A model generated the notes under the pieces. That model was not told the DNA's origin. It did no database searches and worked only from the letters and a program-made list of their open reading frames with translations. A DNA stretch of 64,000 nucleotides from Fidelibacterota bacterium. Lineage in GTDB: Bacteria; Fidelibacterota; Marinisomatia; Marinisomatales; Marinisomataceae. Location: contig BPEH01000002.1 of assembly GCA_019654715.1 (NCBI GenBank), forward strand, positions 1 to 64,000. The letters run 5' to 3'. Numbering within the stretch: position 1 is the stretch's first letter; the number at the start of each line of letters is the position of its first letter. The position numbers were made by a program, and so were the translations under genes. Of the stretch, positions 1,756-28,398 are shown one piece after another.

Positions 1756-2161
1756 CAAGTTTTTTAGAATCTTTTTCTTCTTTTTTCTTAATCTTTCTAT
1801 CGAGTCTAGCTTTTTTTCTATTTTTAACAACTTCATCTCTTTCTTCTTTCCATTTCTTAAGAGCTTTTTCTATTTCACTTTCAGAAAGTCCTTGTTTAAT
1901 TAGATGCCATTTATAAGCAAGACCAGATCTCTTCATAAGCTTATTAACAGGATCTGACACTTGTGCCCCTTCTTTCAACCAATCAATTATTCTATCTTCA
2001 TTAAAATTGAAGTTAGATTCTTTATCAGCTTTGATCGGATCATACCAACCTAACTGTTCAATAGGTGCACCATCTCTTCTTTTTCTAGAATCAATAACGA
2101 CCAACCTATAGAAAGGTCTATTTCTTCTTCCAATTCTTTTAAATCTAATTTTAGTTGCCAT
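1706..2161 (-). CDS. rpsP: 30S ribosomal protein S16 with acidic C-terminal extension
   Basis: The S16 core is at residues 1-80: MATKIRFKRIGRRNRPFYRL, DSRKRRDGAPIEQLGWYDP and DWLKEGAQVSDPVNKLMKRS. It is followed by a Lys/Arg/Glu-rich helical stretch and then the start of the repetitive tail EEAPAEEPAKEE. The family is normally 80-100 residues, though S16 of FCB-group bacteria often carries a tail. The open frame stops at 1706 inside the repeat, probably through an indel. The likely natural end is the TAA at 1237, which would give a protein of about 300 residues. It heads the rpsP-khpA-trmD-rplS run. Confidence 0.93.
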   Translation of the reverse strand: MATKIRFKRIGRRNRPFYRLVVIDSRKRRDGAPIEQLGWYDPIKADKESNFNFNEDRIIDWLKEGAQVSDPVNKLMKRSGLAYKWHLIKQGLSESEIEKALKKWKEERDEVVKNRKKARLDRKIKKKEEKDSKKLVEEAPAEEPAKEESSS

Positions 2162-2239
2162 ATTTATTATCTTTCCATTCTCTTTTAATGAATTAAAACA
2201 GGCGTAATTTGTGGAAAAGGATTGAATAGTCCAAATAAT

Positions 2240-4311
2240 TTATTTTTCAGCAAAATCAATCGAAATTACTTTTGAAATGCCTTTTCTTTCCGAAGTAACC
2301 CCATAAATACAATCAGTTGATTCCATAGTTAATTTATTGTGAGTTACCATTATAAACTGAGTATTCTTGCTATAATCCTTTATGACCTTAGTAAATTTAT
2401 TAACATTTATATCGTCAAGAGGAGCATCTATCTCATCTAAAATACAAAAAGGACTTGGTTTATATTGATATATCGCAAAAAGAAGCGCAATTGCTGTTAA
2501 AGATTTTTCTCCAGCAGACAGCATCCTTAATGAACTATTTTTCTTACCTGGAGGCTGTGCAAAGATTGTTATTTCAGAATTCAATGGATCATCAGTATCG
2601 CTCAAGGCAATTGTTCCTTTTCCTCCTAGAAAGAATGTCTCAAACATTATTTCAAAATTATTTTTAATCTTATTAAAAGTATCGGAAAATTGTTTTTTTG
2701 CCACATTATCAATTTTCTTAATTGCATCTTTCAAATTTGCTTCTGATTCTACTAAATCACTTCTTTGAGACTTTAATAATTGTAGTCTAGTATTTTGTTC
2801 GTTATACTCATCGGATACTGCCCAGTTAATTGGACCAATAGTTTCAATACTTCTTTTTGTCTTTTCTACATTATATGATATATCAGATAGATTATAATTC
2901 TTAATTGATTTAAGCTTAATATTCTCTCCAAATTTATCTATAATTTGCTCTTTAATTTGATCTATCCTTATCTTCGATTCTGCAATCTTCATTTCTGCAT
3001 TCTTTATATCATACAATATGTCGTCTTTTTTGAATCTTTCTGAATCCATCTTTGCACGAATTGACTCCATTTTTATAAAAGCATTATTCACATCAGTTTC
3101 TTTGCTTTTTATATCTGATTTTCCAATATCAATCTTTTGCTGAGTATCTTTAATTGAATCATTTAGTTTGTTGAAGTTGAATTCTTTACTACTTTTATAT
3201 TCTTGAATTTTATTTTTATAGTCTTCAATACTCTTTTTCAATTTCTCATATTTCTTTTTCGGTACCTATAACAGTTTTTCCACAATCATCACATTCCGAA
3301 ATAATTTTCATATAATCTTTGTCAAACTGATTTAATTGATTAATCTTTTTTTGAAGCTCACCTTCAAGAACATCTATCCCTTTTGAAGACTCAGTGTTTT
3401 TCTTCTGAACATCTTTGAGAAGTTTCTCAGTTAATTGATCAACCTTTTTTTGAGTCTTGTCTAATTCTTCTTTTTTATGTAAATAATTGTCCTTAGCGGT
3501 AGAAAAATCCAAATTTTCTGATTTCTGTTTTGAAGAATTTTTATCTAGCAACTTATTCTTCTTTTTAAGAAAAGATTCTAATGGCTTGGTTTCTTTTTCT
3601 AAATCGCTAATCCTTGCTTGAGCTAATTCTATTTCTAGTTTTTGTAATTTTTCACTTAATTTCTCATGTCTATTAAACCTCTTCAACTGCAATTGAAGAT
3701 TTTTAACCTGCATTTCTATTTCAATAATAATATCATCGATTCTTTCCCAAATCTCTATTATTGAGTTCAAATTTTTTCAAAGTTGAACGTCTTTGAGATT
3801 TATACTTATTTACCCCTGCAGCTTCCTCAAACATTATTCTTCTACTATGATCTTTATTTGATAGAATCTGCTCAATCATATTGAGCTCTATTACAGAATA
3901 AGCATCGGAACTCATACCTGTATCAACAAAAAGGTTATATATGTCTTTTAATCTGCATGAATTTTTATTAATAAAATATTCACTTTCTCCACTACGATAT
4001 AATTTTCTTCCGACTTCCACTTGATTATATTCTAAAGGAAGAAGTCCTTTATCATTTTCAACAGTTAAATACACTTCACAAAAACCTAGAGGCTTGACCC
4101 TAGATGTACCATTGAAAATCAGATCCTCCATTTTAGAGCTTCTCAATCTAGATGTTCTTTGTTCGCCAAGAACCCATCGTATTGCATCAACAATGTTTGT
4201 TTTACCACAACCATTTGGACCAACAATACCAGTAATACCATCATTAAAAACAACAGTTTGCTTTTTTGCGAAAGATTTAAAACCAAAGACTTCTAATTTT
4301 GAAATATGCAT
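2240..4311 (-). CDS. smc: SMC-family ATPase, short form without a visible hinge, central CxxC hook-like motif
   Basis: The ABC head is clearly SMC. The N-terminal part (MHISKLEVFGFKSFAKKQ) has Walker A GPNGCGKT at residues 31-38 and DAIRWVLGEQ; the C-terminal part has signature LSAGEKSLTAIALLFAIYQY and Walker B FCILDEIDAPLDD. Two single-base shifts interrupt the frame, an extra G near 3748 and a lost A near 3253; correcting them gives one protein of about 690 residues. Normal bacterial SMC has about 1150-1200 residues with a 150-residue hinge. No hinge is recognisable here. Arms of about 165 residues flank ISECDDCGKTVIGTEKE (Cys codons 3291-3293 and 3282-3284), almost exactly at mid-protein. 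That resembles the CxxCG(R/K) zinc hook of Rad50. The ATG at 4311 lies 5 nt after the HIT stop. The alternative is a collapsed assembly of a full-length smc. Confidence 0.88.
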
Positions 4312-19861: not shown

Positions 19862-20959
19862 CTAATAAATTCTTTTTGGACGAATTCCAATCGCAGTCAC
19901 CAGAACATATGATGTAGAATTAATAGTGTTTTCAATTTCATTGACATCAATAGTGCCATATTCATTGGAACCAAAGATTAAGACTTCATCTCCATTTGAA
20001 TATCAGCTGATCCGACATCAATCATCAACTGGTCCATACAAATTCTTCCTGTAATCTTGAAATTTTGATCTTTAAACTTTACAAACCCATCTACATACCA
20101 AGGACGTGGTACTCCATCTGCAAATCCTGCTTGTACTACTGCAATTCTTGTATCTTTTTTGGTGGTATATACCCCTCCATAGCTAATATGGGTTCCTGCT
20201 TTGACCTCTCTTATTCTACCACAGGCGCGGTAAAGGTCATCACCGGTTTAATAGGCAAATCTTGTGGCACTTCATCGGATGGAAAGGCTCCATACAGCAA
20301 CATTCCTACTCTTATCATATTGAATCGAGATTCTGGAAGGTTTAACATGGCCCCACTATTACTACAATGAATAAACGTAGGGTTCATTCCTAATTTTTCT
20401 GCAATCTTTAATACATCATTAAACTTATTGAGTTGATCATTTGCATATGATAAATCGCCTTCATCAGCAGTTGCAAAGTGTGAATACAGTCCTTCAATCT
20501 CAATGGTATCAATTTGATGTGCTTGTTGTAAGAATTCTTCTGCTTGTTCTAGTGGAATACCCAATCGAGTCATTCCAGTATCTACCTTAAGATGTACTCG
20601 TAGCTTATTATCCCCCTGATGAGCCTTTAAAGCTTCAAATCATCAAAAGAAGATACATTTAAGAGTAGATTATGGGTTTCAGCATCTGAAAGCGTATGAG
20701 GGTTTAATCTAGAATACACAAGAATGTCAGCAGTAATGCCAGCATCACGTAATTCAATACCCTCTTCAATGGTAAAAACAGCAAAATGCTGTATTCCTTC
20801 TTTTTCTAATGTTTGTGCAACTTGGACTGCACCATGGCCATATCCATTTGCTTTGACAGTAGCCATAATCGGAATATCTCCCACCTCATTCTTTAGCAAA
20901 CGATAATTGTTTGCCAATCGTTCTAAATCAATATGTACTTTTGGTCCGATATAGCTCAT
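19862..20959 (-). CDS. alr: Alanine racemase (several frameshifts)
   Basis: This PLP enzyme makes D-alanine for the wall precursor built by MurF. The catalytic Lys lies in MATVKANGYGHGAVQVAQTL. Further landmarks are FAVFTIEEGIELRDAGI, VDTGMTRLGIP, IEGLYSHFATADEGD, FIHCSNSGAML, NMIRVGMLLYGAFP, the catalytic Tyr segment THISYGGVYTT and CMDQLMIDVG. Indels near 20010, 20205 and 20600 split the frame. The restored length of about 365 residues is normal. The ATG at 20959 overlaps the polA stop (TAATG). Confidence 0.93.
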
Positions 20960-23678
20960 TAATGTGCCTCATACCATGAAGATCCAACTCCACAATCAAT
21001 TTCAATTGGAACATCCAAGTCCATTGCATTTTTCATATGTTTTACTACCATTTCTGTAACATAATCAATTTCATTATTATGTACTTCTAAAAGTAGTTCA
21101 TCATGAATTTGTAAAATTAATTTTGATTTTAAATTATTTTCCTTCAAATCTTTATCGATTCTAATCATTGCTAACTTAATCATCTCTGCTGCGGTTCCCT
21201 GAATTGGCATATTAATCGCCATTCTCTCTGCTGCATCCCTTCTCACTTGGTTTTGGCTGTCTGAATCCCATACTGCACGCTTTCTACCAAGTAATGTTTG
21301 TACTGATTTATCTTTTTTAACCAATAATTTTGTGTCTTCCATGTATTGTTTGATTCCTTTGTACTTCTCAAAATAAACATCAATGATTTTCTTTGATTCT
21401 GCAAATGGAATTCCTAATTCTTGGCTTAATCGAAACGATCCCGCACCATACATGATACCAAAATTGACGATTTTGGCAATACGTCTCATTTCAGGCAATA
21501 CATCTTGGTCTTCTTTTACATTAAAACATTTTTTGCAGTAAAAGTATGAATATCTTCCCCACTATTGAGTGCTTTTGTAAGTGCCTCATCTTTGCTCAAA
21601 TGTGCCATGACCCTTAATTCTATTTGGGAGTAATCTGCAGACAAAATCTGATAATCATCAGATTGGGCTTTAATGGCCTTGCGTACTTCTTTCCCATCTT
21701 CGGTACGAATAGGAATATTTTGGAAATTAGGAGTACTGGTTGATAAGCGACCCGTTGCTGTCATGGTTTGATTAAAAGAAGAATGCACACGATTGGTAAT
21801 CTCGTTGATATTGTTTGGAATAGGATCTAGATATGTGTTTTTTAATTTAAATAATTTTCTATACCCTAAAATCAAACTTGGTAGTTCATGGTATTCTTTT
21901 AGTTTGGTTAGTATTGCTTCAGCAGTTGAACGTTTTTTAATCATAGGAAGGTTTAATTGATCAAAAAGTATCTCTGCAAGTTGCTGAGACGAATTTAGAT
22001 TAAACTCTTTTCCAGCAAGCTTAATAATACTCTTTTCCAGCGCATCAAGTTTGATACCAATTTCTTCAGAACGAGATAAAAGATAATTACGATCTACAAA
22101 TATACCGTGAAACTGCATATCAATTAGCACGGGAAGCAAATCGATTTCAATATCTTTAAAGTAAGAGTATAGCTCTTGTTTTTTCAATTCTTTTAAGAAA
22201 ATATCGGTTAATTCGATTACAACATCTGCATCTTCAGCGGCATAAAAAGTAATATCGGCAAGCGCTACTTGATCCATGGTAATTTGGTTGCGTCCCGAAC
22301 CAATTAAATCTTGGATTGGAACCATTTTATAATTCAAATGGGATAAGGATAAGTTGTCCAGCTTATACGAACGTGCATTAGGATTGATTAAATGAGCAGC
22401 AATCATAGTATCAAATTCAATTCCTTGTAAATCAATTCCAAATCGCTTCATAATCAGTGCATCGTACTTAATATTTTGTCCTGTTTTTGGTATTTTTTCA
22501 TTTTCTAGTATAGGTTTTAGAATATTGGTAGCTATTTCTAAATCATTATCTCCAAACAGATTGTCAACCTTATCTTTAAAGTGAATAGGAACATATACTC
22601 CAGTATCTTTCTTCACAGAAAAACTAAATCCTACAATCTCTGCTATCATCGGATTGACTGAAGTGGTTTCCAAATCAACGGACAACCATTCTCCTTCTTT
22701 AATAGAGTCTGCAAAAGATTGGAGACGATCTAAACTGGTTATTAAATCATATTCTTTTTTTCTTTGTACTGTTTCAGGAGAAATACTGGTATCAGAACCT
22801 ATCTTTTTAAGTAATCCAGTAAACTCAAGTTCCTTAAAGATTGATTCTAGCTTTGTGTTGTTTGCTTCTTTCTTTTCAAAATCAGAAAGAGAGGCATCCA
22901 CTGTTACATCTGTTAAGATGGTAACAAGTTGTTTGCTAAGAAATGCATTGTCTTTATTATTTAATAATTTTTCTCTCATTTTTTCATTTTCAATCTGATC
23001 AATATTTTCATATATCTTTTCCATTGAACCAAATTTTTGAATCAGTTTCTTGGCGGTAACAGGGCCAACGCCTTCTACTCCAGGAACATTATCAGAGCTA
23101 TCACCCATTAACCCGAGTAAATCAATAATATGTTCTGGACCAACTCCCCATTTTTCTGATACTTTTTGTGCATTAAAAACCTCTTTTTCTCTTCTTCTAG
23201 CTTGCGGAGCATATAACAGAGTTTGATCATTAATTAATTGCATAAAATCTTTATCTCCGCTTACGATATTGCATTGTAAATCATCTTTTTCACACATTTT
23301 GGCAACTGTTCCAATAATATCATCTGCTTCCACTCCTTCGATTCGTAGCACTGGAATATTCATCCCATCCAAGAGTTCCCATAAGTATGGAAGTTGGGTT
23401 TGAATTTCATCTGGCATCGCAGATCGATTGGCTTTATAGTCTGTATATAGTTCGTGGCGAAAGTTTTTTCCTTTTGAATCAAATGCAGCAACAATGTAAT
23501 CTGGATTTTCTTCTTCTAATAATTGAAATACTTGATTTGCAAATCCAAATACAGCACTTGTTGGTATCCCTGCAGTAGTCGTTAACGGATTACGAATTAA
23601 AGCGTAATGTGCTCGATATAAAGTAGCATATCCATCAATAATGAATAGCCTCTTTTTGTTGTTTTTTGAAGGACTCAT
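20959..23678 (-). CDS. polA: DNA polymerase I (one frameshift)
   Basis: All three domains are present in about 905 residues. The 5'-3' exonuclease has RLFIIDGYATLYRAHYAL, VEADDIIGTVA, VSGDKDFMQL and LLGLMGDSSDNVPGVEGVGP. The 3'-5' proofreading domain is active by its motifs (LSVDLETTSVNPM; QNIKYDALIMKRF; FYAAEDADVV). The polymerase has STSTPNFQNIPIRT, SADYSQIELRVMAHLS, KIVNFGIMYG and LQIHDELLLEV. The shift near 21510 lies between TAKNV and the following conserved region. The ATG at 23678 has no visible ribosome-binding site and lies in the 3' arm of a perfect inverted repeat. No alternative start keeps the conserved N-terminus. Confidence 0.95.
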
Positions 23679-23708
23679 AACTTAGCGGGATAACCCCGCT
23701 AAGTTATG
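23676..23708 (-). repeat. Perfect 14-bp inverted repeat covering the polA start codon
   Basis: On the minus strand the sequence is CATAACTTAGCGGG, a 5-nt loop (GTTAT), then CCCGCTAAGTTATG. The final ATG is the polA start. The element begins 11 nt after the stop of the TonB receptor gene. It lacks a U-tract. It could terminate the upstream transcript, protect its 3' end, or hide the polA start codon. Confidence 0.75.
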
Positions 23709-23719
23709 AAAATAGCAGC

Positions 23720-26153
23720 TTAGAAACTATAAGTTAATGACACGCCAAGCTCTCTTGGAGGTGCAAAAGACTTATATAGTTTCTCTTCAAATGGAGGTTC
23801 TAAAGCAAAAATAAATCCTCTATCTGCGTAATCTTCATCAAGGATATTTTTTGCATAGAATCCTAAATTAATTTTATTGAACGAATGAGAATAGTATGCA
23901 TTCAATAGATGATATGGATCTGATTCATATTCATCATGTGCAGAATCAAATACGAATCCATCTTTTCCTGAAATCTCAATCATTAAAGAATTGTTTTTAG
24001 TGAAATTATAGTTAAATGATAAGCTATAATTCCAGTTTGGTGAATGTGCTTTTTTACCATGTGCATGACCTGCATGTTCATCACCATGATCATCATCATG
24101 ATCAGTCATCATGTCGTCGTCTGGTCATCATCGTGATCATCACCATGATCATCTCCATGGTCTTCGTCACCGTGTTCATCATGATCTCCTAGTTCAACTT
24201 CAGAACTCAATAATCCTAAAGTAGCATTAATAGTAAATTTGTCACTTATTCTAAATTCACCAGTTGATTCAGAACCATACTCATAACCTGATTCAGCATT
24301 TGTCTTAAAGAAAGCAAACGCATTAGGATTTGTTGGATCCAACTGCTCACTTGTTTCATAAATATGACCATCATGCTCTAAATAAAATAGAGAACTTGAT
24401 AATTTTATATTATCAGTATACCATCTTATTCCAGTAGTAATATCATAATAAATTTCCACATCATATGTTTTTTCATCTTCATCCAAATATGGATTTTGAT
24501 TTATACCTGCAGGATGATACCCTTGAGCATAATAGGCAAACCAGTGAAGGTTTGGAGCTGGATGTAATTCATAAGAAACTTTATATGAATTTTCAAAATC
24601 ACCCATGATATCAAAGCTTGCTGTTTTATCATTAAGATCATCATATGTAATATCTCTAGCTTCTGATCTAAAGGCTAAAGCAAGTGATGAATTATTTTTA
24701 AAATTATATGCAAATTCACCATATAGAGCCTTTGTACAATATCATAATTAGAAGATAAAGCGGTGGCAGAACCTCCAAAAATATATCCTGCAGCATTAGT
24801 TTTTTCTTCATAATTAGACTGATATAATCCAATGACATAGTCTATTTTATTATCATTAGCAGTATTTGGTCTTAATCTGAAATCAACAGTTCTTGTATCA
24901 ATATCTCTGTCAAATGAATCAAAGAAGTCATATTGATATCCTTCAACTGTTGGATCAAAGTTATAAGGATCTTGAAGCCAGAATTGATAATTACCCCAAT
25001 CTGAGTCATAACTGTGCAATGTTTCATTGTTTGACATACCAATATTCAAATCAGCAACACCCTCACCAAGATCATAACTATAGTCAGCTATAAAGATCTG
25101 TGATTTTTGACTATCTTTACCTGGATTATCTGAATATGTAATATGATCAGTATTATTATCTGGAGCCCAATTATCATACCCATTGTCAAAATCAGAGTAA
25201 ATCATTGTATACTTTTGTGTAATATTATTATCACCAACCTTTAATAGTTTAGCTCTAAATGATGACTCATCTCTATTTGCTGATGCATTACCCTCTAAAG
25301 TAACATTTTCTTTATATCCATCTGAAACATTCGAATGACCTACCAGTCTTAACTTCCAACCGTTTGATAGTGGAGTGTTATAAACAATTCCATTTGTAAA
25401 AGTATTGTATGAACCAAGCTGGGTCATAACATATCCTTCTTTTTTATCGGTTGGATCGTTGGTTTTGAAATTAATCAAACCAGAAGATGCTGCTGCACCA
25501 AATAAACTAGTTTGAACACCCATTAATACTTCTACTTGCTGCATATCAAAAAGAGGTGTAATCATACCAAGTTCAGATAAATCCATTCCATCCAACACTA
25601 ACCCAACATAAGTACTTGGAGGTCCTTGGTCAGCATATCTACTTACAGAACCCTCTCCTCTAATTTGAAAATATCTCGGTCTGGAAGTTCCACCTGCATA
25701 ATTTAGATTTGGAACTTTTTGTATTAAGTCACTGAAGTGTTGTCCTTGTCTATTTCTTAGCTCATCATTAAAAATGATTGCTGAATTAGCTAAATCACCT
25801 TCATTTACTTTTCTTAATGATGAATATACCTCAACACCTTCAATAGAGACGGCTTGTTTAGCAAGTTCAAATCTAATTGGTTGCGTAAATCCTTTTTTCA
25901 AGGTTACATCAGTTGATAAATCTTCATATCCTATTACAGATACTTCTAACGAATATTCACCTTCATCTAGATTTAAAAATGTAAACTTTCCATCATCTCC
26001 TGATGATGTTCCGCTATCAAAACTATCTGATTTAATCAATATATTAGCATCAGCTAATGGAAGATTGGTTTCTTTGTCAACGACTAAACCTGAAAGTGTT
26101 GACTGAGCATATGTAAAGCTCGTAATTAGTAATAATAAAATAAAATTTTTCAT
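23720..26153 (-). CDS. TonB-dependent receptor with His/Asp-rich loop (frameshifts)
   Basis: This outer-membrane transporter would be driven by TonB. Order: signal peptide MKNFILLLLITSFTYAQ; carboxypeptidase-D-like domain (LSGLVVDKETNLPLADANIL to about residue 110); plug domain with FSDLIQKVPNLNYAGGTSR, YFQIRGEGSVSRY and VEVLMGVQTSLFGAAASSGL; then a long beta barrel ending GVSLTYSF. A loop coded at about 24050-24190 is packed with His and Asp (DHDEHGDEDHGDDHGDDHDD, then DHDDDHGDEHAGHAHG). That points to a divalent-metal ligand such as zinc, copper or nickel. Indels near 24112, 24640 and 24740 interrupt the frame. The gene lies 49 nt after a small Cys/His protein. Confidence 0.88.
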
Positions 26154-26202
26154 TTTTTTCTCCTTAGAAAAATTAGTTTAACAAAAATATAATATTAGGT
26201 TG

Positions 26203-26511
26203 CTATACTAAAGGGGGAGATTTATTAGGAATTGTATGAACAGATTTATAAGAAACAAAATTTAAATTTTTCAAAAAAGAATAATTTGAAGAAGAATCGT
26301 GAGTTACAGATTTATCAATATTAGAAACATACTTAGTAAAACCAAATTTACAGAAATCACAATTATGTGAATCTTTATTGCTTAGAATATCTACACATTC
26401 TTGATTGCAAATGTATTTGTCTGTTGAATTAAATTCGTGTTGATGATAGACTTGAAAATTTATCATCATTAAACCAAACAAAGTGATTAGTGAAATTAAT
26501 TTGTTTTTCAT
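26203..26511 (-). CDS. Small membrane-anchored Cys/His protein upstream of the TonB receptor
   Basis: The protein has 102 residues. An N-terminal signal/anchor helix (MKNKLISLITLFGLMMINF) leads into YHQHEF, then CNQEC and HNCDFCKFGF, and the C-terminus ends NKSPPLV. The layout of anchor, His, CxxC and a C-terminal PP motif is like DUF2946-type proteins that accompany metal-related TonB receptors. This is a likeness in layout, not a proven match. It probably forms a two-gene operon with the His-rich receptor, and a role in metal sensing, delivery or reduction is inferred. It is divergent from the OPT gene with 37 bp between. Confidence 0.65.
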   Translation of the reverse strand: MKNKLISLITLFGLMMINFQVYHQHEFNSTDKYICNQECVDILSNKDSHNCDFCKFGFTKYVSNIDKSVTHDSSSNYSFLKNLNFVSYKSVHTIPNKSPPLV

Positions 26512-26548
26512 ATTGTTTATAAAAATTAAAAATTTGTAAGTTGATATT

Positions 26549-28398
26549 ATGAAAAATGAGATAACTGTCAAAGCCATATTTTTAAGTATAATCCTTTCAA
26601 TCGTTCTTTCTGCTGCAATGGCATATTTAGGATTGTATGCAGGCATGACCGTCTCTGCATCTATTCCAGCAGCAATTGTATCGATGGGAATTTTACGATT
26701 ATTTCGGAATTCAAATATTTTAGAAAACAATATTGTACAAACTGCAGCGTCTGCTGGAGAATCCTTAGCCGCTGGAGTTATTTTTACCATACCTGCTTTG
26801 GTATCATTGGATATTGGGACAGTATTGATGCTTGGGAAGTAACCAAAATCGCAATGATGGGTGGTATACTTGGAGTATTATTTACTGTACCTCTAAGACG
26901 TGCTTTAATTTTAAAAGCAAAACTGAAATTTCCTGAGGGCGTTGCAACAGCAAAAGTGTTAGAAACAGGACATGAATCTGATCCAGATAAATCGGCAAAT
27001 AGTTTAAAAATAATTGGAATATCTGCTCTTATTGGAGGAATTGCTAAACTCGGAACCAAATTTGGTTTTAATATTTGGTCTGAGGCGATTGGAGGAGCCA
27101 CTACAATCAAAAATACAGTCTTTGGAATGGGATCTAGCTTATCTCCTTCTCTTATCAGTGTTGGATATATTGTAGGACGGAATATTGGCATTCTAGCTTT
27201 TTCAGGTGGATTAATATCTTGGGCGATTGGTATTCCGATTTACTCTTATTTAGAAAATGTATACAACGAAGATGCATGGGAAGCTGCTAACAACATTTGG
27301 AGTAAGAAAATTCGTTATTTAGGAGTAGGTGCAATGGTAGTTGGAGGTATTTGGTCTATTATTCAACTTGCTAAACCGCTTATCGAAAGCATGAAACTAA
27401 GTTTAAAAACTTTAAATAGGGATTCTGATAGTGTCCCTCTTGAAGAAAGAGATTTACCAATTAATTATGTTTTTATTGGTATCCTTGTTTTGCTAGTTCC
27501 TATCTGTCTCACTTATTTCAATGTTATACCATCCTGGGGAGCAGCTGTTATTTTATCATTAACTATGTGTATTTTTGGGTTTTTATTCTCAGCAGTAGCA
27601 GCATATATGGCTGGAGTAGTTGGATCATCCAATAATCCTATATCAGGAGTAACAATTGCTACAATTCTATTTACTTCTTTACTAATCTTTACTTTGTTTG
27701 GTAAAGAATCTGGAGCTGCAGCAGCCATTTTAGTCGGAGCTGTTGTATGTTGTGCTGCAGCAATTGGAGGAGATAACTTACAGGATCTAAAAACGGGTAA
27801 TATTGTAGGAGCAACCCCTTGGAAACAACAAATTATGCAAGTCATAGGGGTTATAAGTGCAGCACTAAGTCTTGGTTTTATATTGATGGTTTTAGATGGG
27901 GCATATGGTATTGCAGATGTTACTAGAGAAACATCTTTAGATGCGCCACAAGCTACATTAATGGCTAGTGTAGCTGAAGGGGTTTTTGAAGGAAATTTAG
28001 AATGGACAATTATCTGTATTGGTGCAATCATTGGATTATTAATTATTTTAGTCGATCAGTATCAACTTAAAAGAGGATCAGACTTTAGAGTTCCAATTTT
28101 AGCAGTTGCCATTGGAATGTATCTTCCAATTGAATTAACTTTTCCAATCTTTATTGGTGGGATGATTAATCACTATGCCAATAAAATTTCTTCACAAAAA
28201 GGTAAAAATAATGGATTACTAATAGCTGCTGGGTTAATTACAGGAGAAGCATTAATGGCAATATTTATCGCTATTCCATTATTTTTTGAAAAAGCATTAC
28301 CAAAATATCCACTTCCAGATGAAATGTATGCTAATATAATTGGAGTTATTATCTTGGTATGCATTATTATTGGATTATACAGAACTGCTAAAGAATAA
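26549..28398 (+). CDS. OPT-family oligopeptide/metal-chelate transporter (one frameshift)
   Basis: This polytopic inner-membrane protein has about 616 residues. The N-terminal AAMAYLGLYAGMTVSASIPA is the OPT signature; more than a dozen hydrophobic segments follow. Other parts match the family: TAASAGESLAAGVIFTIPAL, MMGGILGVLFTVPLRRALI, KFPEGVATAKVLETG, GSSNNPISGVTIATILFTSL, AAIGGDNLQDLKTGNIVGAT and YLPIELTFPIFIGGMI. A single indel near 26835 breaks the frame. Substrates may be oligopeptides or metal-chelating peptides. Its place beside a metal-type TonB receptor is suggestive only. Its stop is one base from that of the convergent SPOR gene. Confidence 0.9.

What the first reader, a model, noticed from the sequence alone, without database searches (positions are those of the whole stretch)
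23720..26511. Two-gene metal-uptake unit: Cys/His membrane protein plus TonB receptor with a His/Asp-rich loop
Seen: the receptor has a loop of about 45 residues made mostly of His, Asp, Glu and Gly. The small upstream protein has HxH, CxxxC, CxxC and a C-terminal SPPLV. Known: DUF2946-like proteins with a similar layout accompany metal-linked TonB receptors. Inference: the pair takes up zinc, copper or nickel, and the loop captures the ion at the cell surface. An OPT transporter diverges 37 bp away and could form the inner-membrane step.
Basis: partly seen in the sequence, partly recalled or inferred. Interest (0 to 1): 0.5.

Follow-up and report, generated by a model that had tools for sequence, protein, structure and literature searches.

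The report
Metal-sensing switch on a vitamin receptor
In a small-genome group of ocean bacteria, a surface receptor whose relatives are switched by a vitamin B1 sensor in their RNA now carries metal-binding-type surface loops and sits behind a small gene that looks like a copper-sensing switch, suggesting that a vitamin receptor was re-fitted for a metal.

Summary
In detail: a 102-aa ORF with HxH, CxxC and C-terminal KSPPLV precedes a TonB receptor with a His/Asp/Glu/Gly-rich loop. In the window the receptor and neighbouring genes are broken by frameshifts, probably errors. The organism is SAR406 (Candidatus Marinimicrobia).

The receptor belongs to a phylum-wide family under TPP (vitamin B1) riboswitches: 40 of 40 fetched loci outside the genus, two distant proteobacterial homologues and 3 of 24 genus genomes have one at this locus. 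By descent it is a thiamine-type receptor. The small gene was found only in this genus (18 of 24), and long His/Asp loops only there among the loci read; most members lack the riboswitch.

The small gene is probably no metal carrier. Hydrophobic N-terminus, CxxC and C-terminal PP with an invariant 42-residue spacing (16 of 16; 45 in Bordetella CruR) match copper-sensing CruR/CutF-type upstream ORFs. In 12 distinct relatives (not the window) a covarying RNA hairpin follows it.

Best reading: a thiamine-type receptor re-fitted with a metal-sensing nascent-peptide switch and metal-binding loops, probably for copper. G023 has both switches in tandem. Arrest and substrate are untested; retained thiamine uptake is the main rival.

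The parts
26203..26511 (-). Small ORF (102 aa), proposed CruR/CutF-like metal-sensing upstream ORF
   Evidence: family; spacing; no Pfam/NCBIfam family
26437..26445 (-). HxH codons (residues 23-25), just after the hydrophobic N-terminal helix
   Evidence: helix 2-24 in a low-confidence model
26350..26361 (-). CxxC codons (residues 51-54), proposed metal site
   Evidence: invariant in 16 of 16
26212..26226 (-). NKSPP codons (residues 96-100), proposed arrest motif
   Evidence: invariant in 16 of 16; 42 residues after CxxC in each
26155..26172 (-). Weak predicted hairpin around the receptor's AGGAG (26160-26164)
   Evidence: window fold no better than shuffles (z 0.1)
24675..26153 (-). TonB receptor, first piece: CarboxypepD_reg-like domain, plug, first barrel strands
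24109..24606 (-). TonB receptor, second piece (other frame)
23720..24112 (-). TonB receptor, C-terminal piece (third frame)
24044..24189 (-). His/Asp/Glu/Gly-rich loop A, interrupted by a frameshift; extracellular by strand count on a relative's model
26544..26571 (-). Promoter-like TTGACA-16-TAATAT inside the OPT start; would leave a short leader with no room for an aptamer
   Evidence: 12 such sites found, 20 expected in shuffles: weak
26549..28398 (+). Divergent OPT-family transporter (TIGR00733), split at 26842/26854; neighbour, role in the unit unproven

Best explanation
The receptor descends from a TonB receptor family that across Marinimicrobia is switched by a TPP riboswitch and presumably imports thiamine or a thiamine moiety (family and riboswitch shown; substrate inferred). 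In this streamlined SAR406 genus the unit was re-fitted: a short ORF stands in front and the receptor has His/Asp-run surface loops; most members lack the riboswitch. The short ORF most likely acts in cis like CruR/CutF: while it is made and exported, metal (probably copper) at CxxC changes pausing at the C-terminal KSPP, and this decides whether the downstream receptor is expressed, through RNA structure between the genes (inferred from architecture). The receptor then most likely imports a metal, or a metal-bound ligand, captured by the loops (inferred).
For: Family: TPP aptamer directly upstream in 40 of 40 fetched loci outside the genus (35 above gathering, 5 at 51.3-53.5 bits), in two proteobacterial homologues and in G005, G017, G023, whose only TPP match is this one. 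Genus-only additions: small gene in 18 of 245 phylum genomes, all in the genus; loop A with 8-20 His after the small gene against 0-1 His in 40 of 40 outside. Sensor: CxxC and C-terminal KSPP exactly 42 residues apart in 16 of 16 while the part before CxxC varies from 39 to 50; CruR has 45, with -2 to +2 tolerated; no structure beyond an N-terminal helix, and CruR is predicted to be poorly structured; in G019, 1 of 897 ORFs of 60-150 aa has [KR]xPP in its last 15 residues, this one. RNA: hairpin after the ORF with 7 of 10 pairs changed on both sides. Published CutF-like proteins with Cys motifs mostly precede copper genes, TonB-like genes among the commonest neighbours.
Against: No DUF2946 or HYC_CC_PP match. 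Motif is KSPP, not RAPP; KSPP does not occur in the arrest-motif paper. The covarying hairpin is absent in the window, G020 and G021, and fold z-scores range from -3.5 to +0.1. The second hairpin has no double changes. G023 keeps a TPP riboswitch before the small gene, and 70 receptor positions are shared with TPP-controlled relatives. No metal or arrest assay exists.
Confidence: 0.5

Rival explanations
1. The receptor still imports thiamine or a congener. The riboswitch was lost by streamlining, the acidic His/Asp loops concentrate the cationic vitamin or bind bulk cations, and the small ORF tunes expression or is incidental.
For: Riboswitch family; G023 has riboswitch, small gene and long loop together; 70 universal residues; no ThiC in 24 of 24 genus genomes and thiamine pyrophosphokinase in 18 of 24, so B1 or precursors must be imported.
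Against: Loops are almost purely His/Asp/Glu/Gly and go with a Cys-motif ORF; no TPP match in 21 of 24 genus genomes, several incomplete; most of the genus has another TonB receptor beside the kinase (7 genus kinase loci read).
Confidence: 0.28
2. One reading: the small protein is an exported metal carrier that takes metal from the receptor, and OPT completes import.
For: HxH, CxxC, conserved pair and OPT neighbour.
Against: Invariant C-terminal KSPP, fixed spacing, no predicted fold and a covarying hairpin fit a cis-acting sensor better; OPT stands beside the TPP-controlled receptor without any small gene in the order.
Confidence: 0.12
3. The loops are hypervariable surface decoys, for example against phages or grazers, unrelated to substrate.
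For: Loop length varies strongly among relatives and part of the genus has a second run in loop B; receptor alleles were exchanged between lineages.
Against: Composition restricted to a few metal-binding or acidic residues; the link with the Cys-motif ORF stays unexplained.
Confidence: 0.07

Closest known systems
TPP-riboswitch TonB receptors, e.g. OMthi/BT2390 of Bacteroides thetaiotaomicron (PMC5613172, passages read)
   Same: TonB receptor with a TPP aptamer at the gene start, in the family and in 3 genus genomes
   Different: No sequence comparison with BT2390 was made; the window lacks the aptamer and has the small ORF and His/Asp loop
CruR-CrtA/BfrG, Bordetella pertussis (PMC9426467: abstract, passages, sections 9-10; PMC12914433: passages)
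   Same: Small exported ORF with CxxC and C-terminal xxPP, similar fixed spacing, heads a TonB receptor gene
   Different: No DUF2946 match; 42 not 45 residues; KSPP not RAPP; short gap (43-75 nt) not 162; no PepSY gene seen; another receptor family history
CutF-CutO and CutF-like proteins (PMC9973294: passages, section 11)
   Same: Below 150 aa, N-terminal signal-like helix, Cys motif, PP near the end, short gap with hairpins
   Different: Downstream gene is a receptor; the hairpin that covaries is not the one around the SD; not compared with their sequence clusters
HYC_CC_PP family (NF047658)
   Same: Small secreted Cys protein with C-terminal PP
   Different: Model does not match; hhalign probability 0.2% against one member
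Zinc receptors such as ZnuD (search listing only; loops recalled)
   Same: TonB receptor with proposed metal-binding surface loops
   Different: No sequence tie found; this family is TPP-controlled

Membership tests
TPP-riboswitch (thiamine-type) TonB receptors | Homologous TonB receptor over its length | tested here: met
   91 of 245 phylum genomes at E <= 1e-60; proteobacterial homologues at 28-30%
TPP-riboswitch (thiamine-type) TonB receptors | TPP aptamer upstream | tested here: not met
   Met in 40 of 40 outside loci and in G005, G017, G023; not in the window or its genome, which is 65% complete
TPP-riboswitch (thiamine-type) TonB receptors | Imports thiamine | not testable with these tools
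   needs binding or uptake
CruR (DUF2946) | Match to PF11162 | tested here: not met
   no DUF2946 hit in 16 members at E <= 5
CruR (DUF2946) | CxxC and C-terminal xxPP at fixed spacing near 45 | tested here: inconclusive
   fixed at 42 in 16 of 16; published range 45 within one or two; KSPP not RAPP
CruR (DUF2946) | Heads an operon with a TonB receptor gene | tested here: met
   adjacent in the relatives whose contig spans both; one transcript not shown
CutF-like proteins | Below 150 aa, signal peptide, PP within 15 of the end, same-strand gene close downstream | tested here: met
   signal peptide judged from a predicted helix only
CutF-like proteins | Stem-loop shielding the downstream SD | tested here: inconclusive
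   weak hairpin around AGGAG in 16 of 16 folds, without covariation
CruR / CutF-like | Metal-dependent translation arrest | not testable with these tools
   needs toeprinting or reporters
HYC_CC_PP | Match to NF047658 | tested here: not met
   1 of 245 phylum genomes (G065), none in the genus

The most novel reading that the evidence does not exclude
A vitamin B1-type TonB receptor switched from RNA-based (TPP riboswitch) to nascent-peptide (CruR/CutF-type, metal) control at the same mRNA position while its surface acquired metal-binding loops: a change of sensor and of substrate caught in intermediate states, with G005/G017 (riboswitch only), G023 (both in tandem) and the rest (peptide only) coexisting in one marine genus, the receptor cassettes being exchanged between lineages.
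Probability: 0.42. Interest if true: 0.78.

Novelty: new variant of a known kind. Interest (0 to 1): 0.6.

Why it matters
It would make two unrelated post-transcriptional sensors, a vitamin riboswitch and a metal-sensing arrest peptide, alternatives on the same receptor, and give a natural series for how TonB receptors change control and perhaps substrate. It points to the probable vitamin B1 receptor of an abundant uncultured marine phylum (SAR406), suggests CutF/CruR-type control there, and warns against assigning TonB substrates from His-rich loops alone.

Tried and rejected
Pfam and NCBIfam for the small protein gave no family. HYC_CC_PP considered and rejected. Fur/Zur boxes (consensus recalled): none of note. 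Small protein model: mean pLDDT 45.7, no fold beyond a helix. Receptor model of relative G014: mean pLDDT 61.9, plug poor, used only to count strands. Solved structures by sequence: pesticin receptor only; by fold FoxA and FyuA first; neither informs the substrate. Reading the 24 genus-specific receptor substitutions as proof of a metal switch was rejected: TPP-bearing G005 has the genus residue at 23 of 24 and G017 at 20 of 20 readable. The kinase-linked second TonB receptor was not studied beyond its neighbourhood. A first loop table picked receptors by motif, missed 15 of 42 loci and mislocated one; it was redone on all 40 outside rows by coordinates, and the numbers given are. The AU tests named their groups after trees were seen.

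Full report
What is there. On the minus strand, 26203-26511 encodes a 102-residue protein and 23720-26153 a TonB receptor. In the window the receptor is split into three open pieces; the divergent OPT gene and at least one more gene are split too. Thirteen relatives have complete receptor frames of 718-880 aa, while G012 is also broken, G021 is interrupted by N, and others are cut by contig ends. I treat the breaks as probable errors; this is not proven. The window's genome is 628 kb at 65% completeness. Close relatives with named records are Candidatus Marinimicrobia/Neomarinimicrobiota (SAR406) or titled uncultured bacterium. No Fur-like site was found and Zur-like matches were at chance level.

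The pair is conserved in one genus. A profile of the small protein finds it in 18 of 245 genomes of the phylum, all in this genus of 24 (a 19th match, in G016, is a weak second hit in a long protein). It stands between the divergent OPT gene and the receptor in the relatives whose contig spans all three. Invariant in 16 aligned copies are Met1, both Cys of CxxC, and N-K-S-P-P near the C-terminus.

The receptor belongs to a TPP-riboswitch family. Genus genomes G005 and G017 have no small gene between OPT and receptor; that gap holds a TPP riboswitch (58.7 bits; 42.2 bits in G017, below the gathering score of 54.3, and no ATG start was seen there). G023 has one (57.1 bits) ending at the start of the small gene. 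These are the only TPP matches in the 24 genus genomes, of which only eight are at least 90% complete. Over the phylum 91 of 245 genomes have an orthologue at E <= 1e-60, 70 of them outside the genus. I fetched 40 of those 70. All 40 have a TPP aptamer directly upstream of the receptor: 16 of 20 and 19 of 20 above gathering, the other five at 51.3 to 53.5 bits. From the printed tables 57 of 70 have it in place, and six more are seen in fetched loci, giving 63 of 70; of the other seven, G121, G123, G029 and G140 have a TPP match whose place was not printed, and G051 (receptor at a contig start), G059 and G127 are not among the genomes listed with a match. Two homologues of 28-30% identity, in records titled uncultured proteobacterium, also follow TPP riboswitches (70.8 and 70.7 bits).

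Thiamine context. ThiC is found in 0 of 24 genus genomes and 6 of 245 phylum genomes. Thiamine pyrophosphokinase is found in 18 of 24 genus genomes and 106 of 130 of the order. OPT stands by the receptor in 22 of the 26 fetched loci of the order by motif, with a 23rd (L178, partly masked) by eye, and in 0 of the 14 others. In 9 of those 14 a sodium/solute symporter starts right after the receptor (four confirmed by NCBIfam; five by eye). Of 23 kinase loci read outside the genus, 19 have a symporter of this look next to the kinase by motif, and the other four by eye; four of these symporters are 38-44% identical to two that follow receptors. G019 has only matches of at most 28% to them. In the seven genus kinase loci read, the kinase stands beside a second TonB receptor. 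So descent and neighbourhood say thiamine or a moiety of it. B. thetaiotaomicron OMthi is the experimental precedent for the class (PMC5613172, passages).

What the genus added. Loop A, between barrel strands 17 and 18 by my count on a low-confidence model, has 15-32 residues with 0-1 His in 40 of 40 rows outside the genus, and 28-73 residues with 8-20 His in the 12 genus rows that follow the small gene on one contig; G006 and G013, cut before the small gene, have 48 and 56. G021's loop has 68 residues with 21 His. G005 has 22 residues (5 His), G002 26 (8 His; no small gene found in its genome, receptor cut by a contig end), and G017's loop is cut by the contig end. Part of the genus has a second His/Asp run in loop B (strands 7-8). 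Both loops would be extracellular. 70 residues are shared by genus (17 rows), outside loci (40 rows) and the two proteobacterial homologues; 24 sites are conserved within genus and outside but differ, including two new His (548, 595). G005 has the genus residue at 23 of 24 and G017 at 20 of 20 readable, so these changes do not track riboswitch loss.

Exchange. In the OPT trees G005 lies with G023 and G014, and in the smaller tree G017 with G020; in the receptor trees G005 and G017 are sisters. Holding G005+G017 together is rejected for OPT (p-AU 6e-8); holding G005+G014+G023, or G017+G020, together is rejected for the receptor (p-AU 9e-53 and 2e-62; groups named after seeing trees). The receptor cassette has therefore been swapped between lineages.

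What the small gene does. Published CruR (B. pertussis) is an exported DUF2946 protein encoded before a TonB receptor gene; copper at its CXXC relieves arrest at a C-terminal RAPP motif and so shuts the receptor off; [quoted passage not shown] it is predicted to be poorly structured (PMC9426467: abstract, passages, sections 9 and 10). CutF combines a CxxxC, a C-terminal PP motif and a stem-loop over the next gene's SD; after outer membrane efflux proteins, TonB-like and PCuAC-like proteins are the most frequent neighbours of CutF-like proteins, and most with Cys motifs precede copper genes (PMC9973294: passages, section 11). Arrest by CruR was shown in vitro, and RSPP was partly permissive in other arrest peptides (PMC12992588, passages). 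The present protein has the same plan: N-terminal helix 2-24 and no further structure, CxxC, PP one to five residues from the end, and exactly 42 residues between CxxC and KSPP in 16 of 16, while the part before CxxC varies from 39 to 50 residues. Of 897 mechanical ORFs of 60-150 aa in G019, 33 have PP in the last 15 residues, 4 of these a CxxC or CxxxC, and one [KR]xPP: this one. Between ORF and receptor I folded 16 sequences: 13 show a hairpin after the stop codon; the window, G020 and G021 do not. Fold z-scores run from -3.5 to +0.1, and five are below -2. On 12 distinct rows, 7 of its 10 pairs changed on both sides; 91.1% of cells of both helices pair, against 40-60% when slid; shuffles reached the covariation score in 0 of 500, though relatedness can cause that. 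A second, weak hairpin puts the receptor's AGGAG wholly or partly in its loop; it shows no double changes. Against membership: no DUF2946 or HYC_CC_PP match, and Lys-Ser in place of Arg-Ala.

Conclusion. Shown: family, riboswitch distribution, genus-only additions, exchange, motif spacing, covarying hairpin in relatives. Inferred: arrest, metal sensing, metal uptake. The most likely account is a thiamine-type receptor re-fitted for a metal, probably copper because sensors of this type are mostly copper-linked in print. Retained thiamine uptake is the main rival. In the held library 'TPP riboswitch' with 'Marinimicrobia' gave 0 papers, and 'CutF' with 'Marinimicrobia' one, on a salt-lake microbiome by its title (listing only).

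Noticed in passing
L087-L091, L218, L223; e.g. G007:C1:94860-96123: In the genus, thiamine pyrophosphokinase stands divergently beside a second TonB receptor (about 29% identical to the window's at its N-terminal part); in the rest of the order it stands beside a sodium/solute symporter instead.
   Followed up: partly
L151, L152, L155, L161-L165, L177: Outside the order, TPP-riboswitch receptor genes are followed with almost no gap by a sodium/solute symporter gene, a candidate inner-membrane vitamin B1 (or precursor) transporter of Marinimicrobia.
   Followed up: partly
G014 (93% complete), G011 (92%), G008 (87%): Fairly complete genus genomes with neither ThiC nor a thiamine pyrophosphokinase match; how they obtain TPP is open, import of TPP itself being one possibility.
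   Followed up: no
L197 1483-1872, next to 1975-3168: The one HYC_CC_PP protein of the phylum (G065) precedes an ORF that looks by eye like a CusA-type efflux pump: another small Cys/PP gene heading a probable metal gene.
   Followed up: no
window 20959-28398: Several neighbouring genes (DNA polymerase I-like, OPT, receptor) are split by frameshifts, so this assembly probably carries many single-base errors.
   Followed up: partly
G055 (family f8): One genome lists 12 TPP riboswitch matches where nearly all others of the phylum have one or two.
   Followed up: no
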